Shown: positions 32,933 to 36,054 of the stretch, piece after piece | Layout of the letters: every line of letters begins with the position of its first letter | How positions within the stretch are numbered: position 1 is the stretch's first letter | DNA from: an uncultured Methylococcaceae bacterium | GTDB lineage: Bacteria; Pseudomonadota; Gammaproteobacteria; Methylococcales; Methylomonadaceae | Length of the DNA stretch: 36,382 nt | Assembly (NCBI GenBank): GCA_903927955.1 | Contig: CAIYOW010000049.1 | Coordinates: 1-36,382 of the forward strand | Direction of reading: 5' to 3' | Made by a program: the position numbers and the translations under genes | Notes under the pieces: model-generated | Seen by the model: only the letters and a program-made list of their open reading frames with translations | The model's database searches: none | What the model was told of the DNA's origin: nothing

Positions 32933-33286
32933 ATGCAACTTAACGAATTTCTGGACAAAGTCAAAAATCATGAACCGGTCAGTTTTAACGAGACTATCGC
33001 CGTTATTGCCGAAAACTATCACTACACCCCCAGCACTTTTAGTAACGGACTAGGCGAACAGCAAGTGGTCAATATAGCTGGCACTAACGAAGGCTCCTGC
33101 AAAATTTTTGCCTTTGCCTTACTGCACGGCTTAACCGAACAACAAACCCTAAACCTGTTCGACGATTACTACCGGCAAGATGTGCTGAACGCCCCGGACG
33201 GCACTAGCCACGCCAACATCAGAAATTTTATGCGTTTTGGTTGGACGGGCATTCAGTTTGCAACACAGGCTTTGCAGCTTAAATAA
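32933..33286 (+). CDS. HopJ type III effector family protein
   Basis: The product is 117 residues without signal peptide. The pattern ENYHYTPSTFSNGLGEQQVVN, NEGSCKIFAFALLHGLTEQQTL, LFDDYYRQDVLNAPDGTSH and NIRNFMRFGWTGI is the full HopJ family domain. The name comes from a Pseudomonas syringae effector, but the family is widespread in free-living bacteria, where it is cytoplasmic and of unknown role. It follows smpB after 39 bases. Its upstream region is C-rich with no purine-rich ribosome site, so it may depend on read-through or on an unstructured leader. Confidence 0.88.
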   Translation: MQLNEFLDKVKNHEPVSFNETIAVIAENYHYTPSTFSNGLGEQQVVNIAGTNEGSCKIFAFALLHGLTEQQTLNLFDDYYRQDVLNAPDGTSHANIRNFMRFGWTGIQFATQALQLK

Positions 33287-33478: not shown

Positions 33479-34339
33479 CTAAGCCAATTTTTCAATAATG
33501 CCGTCCAGCTCTTCCAACCCGGCATAATTGATCACCAGTTTACCGCTACCGTTGCCCTTGTGGACAATCACCACTTTTGCCCCCAATTTGGCACTTAAGG
33601 TTTGTTGCAAGCGTAGCGTATCGTTATCGGTGGTTGTGGCTGTGACGGCACTACCAGTGGTCGGGGCTTGTTGCAGGTTTTTTACCAATTGTTCAGCGGC
33701 GCGGACGGTCATGCCGGCCCTGACAATTTTTTGGGCGGCCTCCAGCTGTTGGTCGGGGTCTAGTGCCAGCAACACTTTGGCGTGGCCCAGTTCCAGTTGT
33801 TTGCCCAGCAACATTTTTTTTACGTCAGGATGCAACTCCATCAGACGCAGCAGGTTGGTGATGGTAGTGCGTGATTTGCCGACTGCTTCGGCAATTTGTT
33901 GGTGGGTCATGGCAAATTCTGCCAGCAATCGCCTAAGTGCTTCGGCTTCTTCCAACGGGTTGAGGTCTTCGCGCTGGATGTTTTCAATCAGAGCCACCGC
34001 CATAGCAGTGCGGTCATCCATTTCCTTAACGACCACAGGCACCTGTGCCAATGAGGCCAGTTGCGCGGCGCGCCAGCGCCGCTCTCCGGCAATAATTTCG
34101 TAGCGGTCTTGGCCTATTTTACGCACCACAATAGGTTGGATAATGCCTTGCGCTTTGATGGAATCCGCCAATTCCTGTAATTTTTCAGGGTCTATATCAC
34201 GACGCGGCTGGTATTTGCCACGTTGCAAATATTCTATCGGCAAGCTATGAGCCAATGCTTGCTGTTTTTCATCGCGCTGGCCGACATCGCCTAAGAGCGC
34301 GTCTAAGCCGCGGCCTAAACCTCGTTTTTGTACGGACAT
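33479..34339 (-). CDS. parB: Chromosome partitioning protein ParB
   Basis: The product is 286 residues. The N-terminal ParA-activating box is KRGLGRGLDALLGD (residues 5-18). The ParB/Sulfiredoxin CTPase domain follows with QPRRDIDPEKL, the C-motif/P-motif region GERRWRAAQLA and VALIENIQREDLNPLEEA. The helix-turn-helix parS-binding domain contains MTHQQIAEAVGKSRTTITNLLRL, and a C-terminal dimerisation region ends the protein. It spreads around parS sites and works with ParA to segregate the chromosome origin. It lies 31 bases behind the small 91-residue gene. No consensus parS was found in the window by eye. Confidence 0.97.
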   Translation of the reverse strand: MSVQKRGLGRGLDALLGDVGQRDEKQQALAHSLPIEYLQRGKYQPRRDIDPEKLQELADSIKAQGIIQPIVVRKIGQDRYEIIAGERRWRAAQLASLAQVPVVVKEMDDRTAMAVALIENIQREDLNPLEEAEALRRLLAEFAMTHQQIAEAVGKSRTTITNLLRLMELHPDVKKMLLGKQLELGHAKVLLALDPDQQLEAAQKIVRAGMTVRAAEQLVKNLQQAPTTGSAVTATTTDNDTLRLQQTLSAKLGAKVVIVHKGNGSGKLVINYAGLEELDGIIEKLA

Positions 34340-34370: not shown

Positions 34371-34646
34371 TTAATCCGCTGCCGGGCTATCGCCAGACAT
34401 ATCGGCGCGGATGGTCATTTCAAAGGCTTCAATTAATGCCAACAATGCTTCTGCTTCTGCCACGAGATACTGATGCTCCTGATGCAGCGCTTGCTTCAGC
34501 ACTAGTGTCTGGACGCTGGCTGCTTGGTTGTTGGCCAAGTCGCTACCGCTGGCTGTTGACAACCCTAGGCTGCCGCTGTCCTCTAAGTGGGTGTGCGCCA
34601 ACAACGCTTCAAGCCCCTTGCCTAATCCTCGTTTTTTTGGGTTCAT
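34371..34646 (-). CDS. Small protein with a ParB-type N-terminal box, between parA and parB
   Basis: The product is 91 residues. Its start, PKKRGLGKGLEALLAHTH, aligns with the ParB start QKRGLGRGLDALLGD: KRGLG, GL and ALL are identical. In ParB this Arg/Lys-containing peptide is the part that stimulates ParA ATPase. After the box the protein has a Ser/Gly-rich linker and one long acidic amphipathic segment (about residues 43-80: VLKQALHQEHQYLVAEAEAL...) that may form a coiled coil. There is no ParB CTPase or helix-turn-helix domain. Its ATG overlaps the parA stop (ATGA), so it is translationally coupled to parA. It could be a second ParA regulator, a dimeric ParB competitor, or a remnant of a parB duplication; the intact frame and coupling speak against decay. 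I know of no named family for it. Confidence 0.8.
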   Translation of the reverse strand: MNPKKRGLGKGLEALLAHTHLEDSGSLGLSTASGSDLANNQAASVQTLVLKQALHQEHQYLVAEAEALLALIEAFEMTIRADMSGDSPAAD

Positions 34647-35416
34647 GCGATGTTGCTTTCTTTTTTGATCATCTCTTCAGCAAGGCTAATGTAGGCTTGC
34701 GCACCGCGTGATGATTTGTCGTAACTTAACACCGGCAAGCCGTGGCTGGGTGCTTCTGCCAAGCGGATATTGCGCGGGATGCAAGTCATAAACACTTGCT
34801 CGCCAAAATAACGGATCAGTTGTTCCGAGACATCTTTGGTCAGGCGGTTACGGTCGTCGAATAAGGTGCGCAAAATGCCCTCAAGATGCAAATCGGGGTT
34901 GACAGTTTGCTGGATATTTTTAAGCGTGGCCATTAATGCGGAAATACCCTCCAATGCGTAATATTCGCACTGCATGGGGATTAACAGGCTGTGTGCCGCC
35001 ACCATGGCATTCAAGGTGAGCATGTTTAACGATGGCGGGCAATCAATCAGAATATAGTCGTATGCCGACCGGATGCTTAACAACGCATCAGCCAAGCGTT
35101 GTTCTTTGCGCTCGCTGTGGATTAGCTCCACTTCAGCGGCAGTCAGGTCGGCATTGCCGGGGATAATGGCAAACGCAAATTCCGGCAGGTTAATGACTGC
35201 CTGGATAGCGGGCACGTTGCCCATGAGCAAGTCGTAGCTGGAATAATCGACCGCTTCTTTATCGACCCCGCAGCCCATTGCCGCATTGCCTTGCGGATCA
35301 AGGTCGATGAGCAGCACTTTGCGTTGGGCTGCCGCTAAAGAGGCCGCCAAATTGACACTGGTGGTGGTTTTGCCCACGCCACCTTTTTGGTTGGTAATGG
35401 CAATTATTTTTCCCAC
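34643..35416 (-). CDS. parA: Chromosome partitioning ATPase ParA (Soj)
   Basis: The product is 257 residues. It is a deviant Walker-type ATPase that binds DNA non-specifically and moves ParB-parS complexes. The deviant Walker A is NQKGGVGKTTT (residues 8-18), followed by LLIDLDPQGNA, Walker B YILIDCPPSL and the C-terminal SRGAQAYISLAEEM. The start is GTG at 35416, giving MGKIIAITNQKGG, supported by GAGGAG 5 bases upstream. The open frame to 35455 lies within rsmG. It overlaps rsmG by 13 bases and the small 91-residue gene by 4 bases. Confidence 0.97.
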   Translation of the reverse strand: MGKIIAITNQKGGVGKTTTSVNLAASLAAAQRKVLLIDLDPQGNAAMGCGVDKEAVDYSSYDLLMGNVPAIQAVINLPEFAFAIIPGNADLTAAEVELIHSERKEQRLADALLSIRSAYDYILIDCPPSLNMLTLNAMVAAHSLLIPMQCEYYALEGISALMATLKNIQQTVNPDLHLEGILRTLFDDRNRLTKDVSEQLIRYFGEQVFMTCIPRNIRLAEAPSHGLPVLSYDKSSRGAQAYISLAEEMIKKESNIA

Positions 35417-36054
35417 AACCGCTCCTCTATTGGTAATTTTATTTTGACCAAGCACCTTTGTACATCGGTGCCGGGTAGTGTGATAGGTGTAATGTCAGTT
35501 GCGATATGCCACGCCGCCAAAGCTTCAATTTCGGCATCGAGGTGCTGGCTTTTCATAGCCAATAACGCACCCTCTTCCGCCAACAAGTGTCCAGTGAGCT
35601 TAATAATGTCCGCCAAGCTGGCAAATGCGCGGGTCAGCACGGCATCGAAGCCTTGTTGCGGTCGGTACGATTCGGCGCGCTCATGGTAAACACTGGTATT
35701 GTTAAGCTTCAGTTCCAAAATGGCTTGCTGCACAAAACGGGTTTTTTTGGCATTGCTGTCCAACAACACAAATTGCCTGTCGGGCATGACAATAGCAAGC
35801 GGAATGCCGGGCAGACCCGCCCCTGTGCCAACATCGATGATACGTTTACCGTCAATAAAAGGGGCTATTGCCAAGCTGTCCAGCAAATGCAGACGCACCA
35901 TTTCTTCGCGTTGTCGAATGGCGGTGAGGTTATAAGCCTTGTTCCATTTTTCTATTAAGGCAATAAAATCGGTCAATTGTTGGATTTGTTCGGGGCTTGC
36001 CGGTATGTCCAACGCAACCAAGCCAGCTTCCAGAATAGCACGGGCAGTATTCAT
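35404..36054 (-). CDS. rsmG: 16S rRNA (guanine-527-N7)-methyltransferase RsmG
   Basis: The product is 216 residues. It methylates G527 in the 530 loop of 16S rRNA; loss gives low-level streptomycin resistance. Motifs are KWNKAYNLTAIRQREEMVRLHLLDSLA, the SAM-binding VGTGAGLPGIPLAIV, LLDSNAKKTRFV and the catalytic-region VLTRAFASLADII. Its ATG shares one base with the mnmG stop (TGATG), the classical mnmG-rsmG coupling. parA begins 13 bases before its end. Confidence 0.97.
   Translation of the reverse strand: MNTARAILEAGLVALDIPASPEQIQQLTDFIALIEKWNKAYNLTAIRQREEMVRLHLLDSLAIAPFIDGKRIIDVGTGAGLPGIPLAIVMPDRQFVLLDSNAKKTRFVQQAILELKLNNTSVYHERAESYRPQQGFDAVLTRAFASLADIIKLTGHLLAEEGALLAMKSQHLDAEIEALAAWHIATDITPITLPGTDVQRCLVKIKLPIEERLWEK
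35422..35427 (-). promoter_or_regulatory. Ribosome binding site deciding the parA GTG start
   Basis: GAGGAG on the minus strand lies 5 bases before GTG 35416, which matches the conserved ParA N-terminus. Confidence 0.8.

What the first reader, a model, noticed from the sequence alone, without database searches (positions are those of the whole stretch)
34371..34646. A ParB 'head' peptide encoded as its own gene between parA and parB
The 91-residue protein repeats the ParB N-terminal box (KKRGLGKGLEALL against QKRGLGRGLDALL) but lacks every other ParB domain, and it is joined to parA by an ATGA overlap. In ParB this box is what triggers ParA ATP hydrolysis. A free, DNA-independent copy with an acidic helical tail could tune ParA turnover, compete with ParB, or link ParA to another cell structure. 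As far as I know this three-gene layout has no described function.
Basis: partly seen in the sequence, partly recalled or inferred. Interest (0 to 1): 0.75.

Follow-up and report, generated by a model that had tools for sequence, protein, structure and literature searches.

The report
Shrunken ParB copy beside parA
Many methane-eating bacteria carry, between their two chromosome-sorting genes, a tiny third gene that is a whittled-down copy of one of them, keeping only the hook that grips the motor protein and one helix pair; it is under selection and probably acts as a second partner of that motor.

Summary
The ORF is real: it lies between parA and parB, overlaps parA by ATGA and starts with ParB's ParA-binding box. 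That nothing else of ParB is left is wrong: the tail descends from ParB helices alpha3-alpha4, and three 147-aa relatives hold a whole, decayed ParB_N domain. It is an internally deleted tandem duplicate of parB. It sits at the par locus in 13 genera of the window's family (Methylococcales methanotrophs); seven genomes (six of the Methylomonas genus code, one of another family) hold a relocated copy and keep parA-parB without it. Selection is strong on the box (dN/dS 0.02), clear on the tail (0.17), weaker on the linker (0.41). The CTP motif GERR is absent in 87 of 87. ParB's helix break is lost (L/I in 86 of 86) and AlphaFold2 draws one continuous helix. I infer a ParA partner that needs no DNA or CTP, its boxes paired by a coiled coil, acting as a second ParA ATPase activator or a decoy. 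Origin and selection are shown by computation; ParA binding is very likely; dimer, activation and phenotype are inferred. The searches named in the report found no description of it.

The parts
34371..34646 (-). small ParB-derived gene, 91 aa
34599..34637 (-). ParA-binding box, residues 4-16 (KKRGLGKGLEALL); AF2 short helix at residues 10-17 (pLDDT about 60)
34395..34538 (-). continuous predicted helix, residues 37-84; 31 residues of the model have pLDDT 90 or more, the helix ends are lower
34422..34523 (-). segment homologous to ParB alpha3-loop-alpha4 (about residues 42-75 against ParB 108-141)
   Evidence: residue mapping by me
34464..34466 (-). Leu61 codon, where ParB has the proline that starts alpha4 (ParB P127)
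34643..35416 (-). parA (start GTG at 35416, or 35455)
33479..34339 (-). parB, full length: box, ParB_N, HTH_ParB, ParB_C
35404..36054 (-). rsmG (gidB), upstream neighbour

Best explanation
The gene is a tandem duplicate of parB that lost its DNA-binding and dimerisation domains and then the CTP-binding core, keeping the ParA-binding box and helices alpha3-alpha4. Loss of the proline between these helices turned them into one long helix. I infer that this helix forms a coiled coil that holds two boxes side by side, as the CTP-closed ParB clamp does, so that the protein binds ATP-ParA dimers without CTP, parS or DNA of its own and either speeds their ATP hydrolysis or occupies the ParB site. It would thus set the pool of ParA available to partition complexes. 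Shown by computation: origin, conservation, selection, loss of the CTP and DNA parts. Predicted: the long helix. Inferred: ParA binding (very likely), dimer, activation, cell role.
For: Tail-ParB homology by profile-profile: 98.1% for 86 tails, 97.2% for the 65 short forms alone, against 1.8% for the reversed alignment and at most 0.2% for four column shuffles; the profile also hits C. crescentus ParB 6t1f residues 1-150, E 7e-5. Erosion series in Pfam ParB_N E-value over six forms scanned: 2e-25, 6e-25, 1e-17, 2e-5, 0.05, none. The three long forms fall in a clade with the family's ParBs and one further row of the order (99/93). dN/dS: box 0.024, tail 0.17, linker 0.41, 19 pairs pooled. GERR in 136 of 138 ParB, 0 of 87 small proteins; at the alpha4 start ParB has P in 108 of 135, the small proteins L or I in 86 of 86. 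Six core heptad positions of the tail are 99-100% hydrophobic, Ala counted. AF2: one helix 37-84 where ParB has helices 108-121 and 127-141. Seven genomes with relocated copies all keep adjacent parA-parB without the small gene there. Literature: two juxtaposed boxes activate ParA best (PMC12462528, abstract and sections 6, 12, 13 read); alpha3 packs on alpha4' of the partner in the closed clamp (PMC8367383, passages).
Against: No binding, ATPase or expression data. The AF2 model is a monomer, with pLDDT near 60 over the box and pTM 0.43; no ParA complex could be predicted. The heptad has a polar position (58), and a second hydrophobic stripe could mean a bundle or a hetero-contact. Twelve genera examined lack the gene at the par locus, and one g14 genome too, so it is dispensable. 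One pair of 19 (L087/L089) has dN/dS 1.20, at very low dS 0.06. The six relocated copies in genus g12 show no obvious ribosome-binding site (by eye). The ORF finder required L[GNS][RK]GL or a near variant close to the start, so the invariance of those positions is partly by construction; no interval of the family with room for a gene (100 bases or more) failed that filter.
Confidence: 0.5

Rival explanations
1. Decoy or competitor: it binds the ParB pocket of ParA without activating it, and so damps ParA-ParB tethering.
For: Box almost invariant; no DNA-binding part, while full ParA activation needs DNA as well as ParB (PMC12462528). Consistent differences from the ParB box (E for D in 82 of 86; never G after LL in 86, where ParB has G in 87 of 87) could alter activation.
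Against: The basic residue that matters for activation is kept as R (83) or K (3) of 86, though the filter required R or K.
Confidence: 0.22
2. ParB modulator: its alpha3-alpha4 helix exchanges with ParB alpha3/alpha4 and alters gate closure or adds boxes to the clamp.
For: The kept helices are those that swap between subunits in the closed clamp (PMC8367383 passages); a second hydrophobic stripe on the tail.
Against: The loop and proline between the helices are remodelled into one predicted helix, which should fit the ParB exchange site poorly (inference); the very tight box would be left unexplained.
Confidence: 0.13
3. Adaptor: the tail ties ParA to another structure such as a pole or division protein.
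For: Precedent: PadC recruits ParA to bactofilins in Myxococcus (PMC12704722 passages); the tail is conserved.
Against: The tail comes from ParB, not from a new domain; the two relocated settings seen, beside RnfB- and MetG-like genes and beside a RapZ-like gene, share no evident partner gene (labels recalled).
Confidence: 0.1
4. Relic or translational coupling element without a protein function.
For: Patchy: mainly part of one family, 4 changes of state on the tree.
Against: dN/dS 0.024 on the box and 0.17 on the tail; relocated copies away from parA are also constrained (0.22).
Confidence: 0.05

Closest known systems
ParB/Spo0J of chromosomal ParABS
   Same: ParA-binding box; alpha3-alpha4 segment; gene neighbour of parA
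   Different: no GERR motif, no HTH, no C-terminal dimer domain; helix pair predicted as one helix
PadC of Myxococcus xanthus
   Same: an extra ParB-like ParA partner beside ParB itself, with a ParA-binding motif (PMC12704722 passages)
   Different: PadC binds CTP and recruits ParA to bactofilins; larger and encoded elsewhere (recalled)
PomX N-terminal peptide (ParA/MinD ATPase-activating proteins)
   Same: short basic N-terminal activating peptide; PomX and PomY are two activators of one ATPase (PMC13170346 passages)
   Different: not related in sequence and a larger scaffold protein (recalled)
Orphan ParB proteins (PMC12704722 passages)
   Same: ParB-derived genes outside the parAB pair, as the relocated copies are
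   Different: those are defined as keeping the ParB-CTPase fold; these proteins have lost it

Membership tests
ParB (canonical) | ParA-binding motif LG-R/K-GL | tested here: met
   strict match in 84 of 86 small proteins with an identified box, the other 2 have N or S for the G; the search pattern itself required L[GNS][RK]GL
ParB (canonical) | CTPase motif GERR | tested here: not met
   0 of 87 small proteins, 136 of 138 ParB
ParB (canonical) | HTH_ParB and ParB_C domains | tested here: not met
   no Pfam hit for the 91-aa protein; no HTH_ParB or ParB_C hit in the six other forms scanned
ParA ATPase-activating protein | basic N-terminal activating peptide with a conserved K/R | tested here: met
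   with the same caveat on the search pattern
ParA ATPase-activating protein | stimulates ParA ATPase | not testable with these tools
   needs a bench assay
ParA ATPase-activating protein | occurs only with its ParA | tested here: inconclusive
   small genes at the par locus have parA by construction; seven of seven relocated copies lie in genomes with adjacent parA-parB; G011 has no ParB at E 1e-30, no close ParA and no match to the small-gene profile. Genomes with the gene but no parA were not sought systematically

The most novel reading that the evidence does not exclude
A second ATPase-activating protein of a chromosomal ParABS system, made by paring ParB down to its ParA box plus a coiled coil that mimics the closed clamp, so that ParA can be switched off away from the partition complex without CTP or parS.
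Probability: 0.4. Interest if true: 0.78.

Novelty: new variant of a known kind. Interest (0 to 1): 0.62.

Why it matters
A recent paper states that, apart from PomX/Y/Z, systems built on a ParA/MinD ATPase have a single activator (PMC13170346 passages), and another that ParA-ParB contact is in effect limited to partition complexes because clamp closure must bring the boxes together (PMC12462528 section 6). A natural, widely kept protein with the box but no DNA or CTP part would break both rules and gives a ready tool to test whether juxtaposed boxes alone are enough. The size series from a 147-aa ParB_N copy down to 63 aa shows how a partner protein is reduced to what selection keeps.

Tried and rejected
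Rejected: chance similarity (many homologues, strong selection); pseudogene of parB (dN/dS, open frames); replacement of a lost ParB box (ParB box present in 87 of 87). Tried without result: Pfam and NCBIfam give no family for the 91-aa protein and PHROGs none for it (one other form has weak ParB hits there); papers on methanotroph parAB listed nothing relevant; a search combining rarer terms found 0 papers. G027 carries parA followed by a parB remnant broken by stops, not the small gene. Searching by single sequence missed two genus members (G002, G013) that do have the gene. A pattern like parS has no match above chance in the window. Not done: prediction of a ParA complex (one chain only is offered) and fold search (a lone helix would match anything).

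Full report
OBSERVATION. The 91-aa ORF lies at 34371-34646 on the minus strand, starts inside the parA stop (ATGA) and precedes a full-length parB. [quoted passage not shown] 22 of 61 genomes searched; in a few the parB runs off the contig end). The script parsed parA-parB intervals in 138 de-duplicated loci out of 206 held: 87 carry a small ORF, 51 do not. Of the 138, 96 are distinct genomes of the window's family, 80 with the gene and 16 without. They were picked because they had hits or as contrast, so the ratio is not a frequency. In 49 of the 87 the start overlaps parA by ATGA. One (L018) was parsed from an internal start and left out of the box and tail counts, which are therefore of 86. 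The ORF finder required a box-like pattern near the start; no interval of the family of 100 bases or more failed it, and the three longer intervals without a small gene lie outside the family.

SPREAD. Small genes at the par locus were found in 13 genera of the family by the tool's codes (g1, g2, g4, g5, g10, g13, g14, g15, g16, g18, g33, g34, g39). Named relatives are Methylovulum, Methylobacter, Methylomonas, Crenothrix and other Methylococcales (17 loci, one of them a Pseudidiomarina ParB). Two contigs of genus g1 (G006:C12, G007:C23) have the lengths of contigs named Methylovulum sp. and M. psychrotolerans, so the window is probably of that group. Examined loci of g3, g6, g7, g8, g11, g12, g17, g29, g31, g32, g37, g38 and one g14 genome have parA and parB next to each other, 56 bases apart at most. 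In an order-wide draw 53 of 201 genomes match at E 1e-10, a threshold that misses the shortest forms. Further out: in 369 class genomes the listed matches outside the family lie in open frames of at least 273 aa, that is in ParB-length frames, except one 69-aa frame at a contig end (list truncated); in 398 phylum genomes at E 1e-8 only the window and two ParB-length frames match. On a ParA+ParB tree (98 loci, quick method, several weak or long branches) the label needs 4 changes, against about 20 when shuffled, which fits one origin and a few losses.

RELOCATED COPIES. Six genomes of genus code g12 (G154, G170, G640, G644, G645, G647) hold a 73-77-aa copy away from the par locus. G645 and G647 have the contig lengths of Methylomonas fluvii EbB and Methylomonas sp. 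LW13. In all six the same two genes lie nearby, RnfB-like and MetG-like by my reading (labels recalled), and four of the six stretches hold many copies of a CRISPR-like repeat. G601, of another family of the order, holds an 81-aa copy next to a RapZ-like gene (label recalled). All seven keep adjacent parA-parB with no room for the small gene. In one search two of 20 g12 genomes had the copy. The g12 copies are constrained (three disjoint pairs, dN/dS 0.22).

ORIGIN. The tail is ParB. Profile-profile comparison of 86 tails (box removed) with 34 ParBs from outside the family gives 98.1% probability; the 65 forms of at most 105 aa alone give 97.2%, with controls at 1.8% (reversed) and at most 0.2% (four shuffles). 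The alignment profile hits solved ParB structures, best C. crescentus 6t1f residues 1-150 (E 7e-5). Three relatives of 147 aa (L088, L090, L091) match ParB_N over positions 3 or 4 to 95 of 95, with an altered GERR motif (GESR, GENR, GESR); further forms step down to no Pfam hit. A tree of N-domains puts these three in a clade with the ParBs of the family and one further sequence of the order (99/93); holding the family and the long forms as one clade is not rejected (p 0.284). The long forms have long branches and their exact place is open.

WHAT IS KEPT. In 86 boxes the two leucines of ALL, which the search pattern did not demand, are invariant; the basic residue is R in 83 and K in 3. The box differs from that of the neighbouring ParB: E for D in 82 of 86, and after LL never G (A 42, V 36, others 8) where ParB has G in 87 of 87. 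Pooled Nei-Gojobori over 19 disjoint pairs (38 of 86 loci, aa identity 68-89%): box 0.024, linker 0.41, tail 0.17, all 0.24; 18 pairs lie between 0.10 and 0.39, one exceeds 1 (L087/L089, 1.20, dS 0.06) (the Biopython routine tried first failed for four pairs, and its YN00 values, where given, are higher, 0.19-0.63). GERR occurs in 136 of 138 ParB and 0 of 87 small proteins; ParB has P at the alpha4 start in 108 of 135 and the small proteins L or I in 86 of 86.

STRUCTURE. AF2 with 16 sequences (mean pLDDT 72.1, pTM 0.43) gives a short helix at 10-17, a low-confidence linker and one helix 37-84, with 31 residues of the model at pLDDT 90 or more. The same method on ParB gives helices 108-121 and 127-141 with a loop between. 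In the tail, positions 61, 65, 68, 72, 75, 79 follow a 4-3 heptad and are 99-100% hydrophobic (Ala counted); position 58 is polar; a second stripe (62, 71, 78) is 88-100% hydrophobic (mapping by me). A coiled coil is thus plausible but not shown.

MECHANISM. In M. [quoted passage not shown] In C. crescentus alpha3 swings out to pack on alpha4' in the closed clamp (PMC8367383 passages). The small protein keeps box and alpha3-alpha4. The simplest reading is a ParA partner whose boxes are paired by its own helix. Whether it activates or competes cannot be told from sequence; the kept K/R leans towards activation.

KNOWN OR NEW. The main text of a survey of the ParB-CTPase fold (PMC12704722, passages only) holds no Methylo- name and no word tandem. 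Searches of the held library for parA/parB with small ORF, truncated or paralogous ParB, methanotroph parAB, Methylomonas ParB, ParA peptide activation and rarer terms (0 papers) list nothing that, by title or start of abstract, describes this gene. Only listings and the passages or sections named were seen, and subscription papers are mostly missing.

CONTEXT. The window genome has one ParB_N match and two parS-like palindromes, 38 bases apart, on contig C85 (1 mismatch to the recalled consensus; at up to 2 mismatches the backward control pattern matches at least as often), so its ParABS looks intact but parS is not proven. In G068 parA was not found at the parB locus and ParB starts without a box, a single-case hint that the box is kept for ParA.

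Noticed in passing
L144:1426-2271 (G068): ParB without the ParA-binding box, and no parA found beside it; genome-wide only distant ParA-like proteins (best 33% identity).
   Followed up: partly
L150 about 1370-1510 (G027): parA followed by a parB remnant with stops; no ParB at E 1e-30 in the genome.
   Followed up: partly
G011, G062, G077, G104: No ParB at E 1e-30 and only distant ParA-like proteins (33-36% identity), so these genomes may lack chromosomal ParABS.
   Followed up: no
L083, L084, L086 (genus g39): The linker of the small protein holds imperfect tandem repeats of about 16 residues, in different numbers.
   Followed up: no
window 32933-33286 (+): HopJ-family gene (PF08888, E 4e-44) near parB; the family name is historical and occurs in many non-pathogens (recalled).
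   Followed up: no
L007, L194: Unusually long gaps (860 and 665 bases) between parA and parB, with several hundred bases after the small gene.
   Followed up: no
G000:C85:13428-13481: Two parS-like palindromes TGTTCCACGTGGAACA, 38 bases apart.
   Followed up: no
L187, L188, L209, L211: Relocated copies of the small gene lie near CRISPR-like repeat arrays in four of six g12 genomes.
   Followed up: partly
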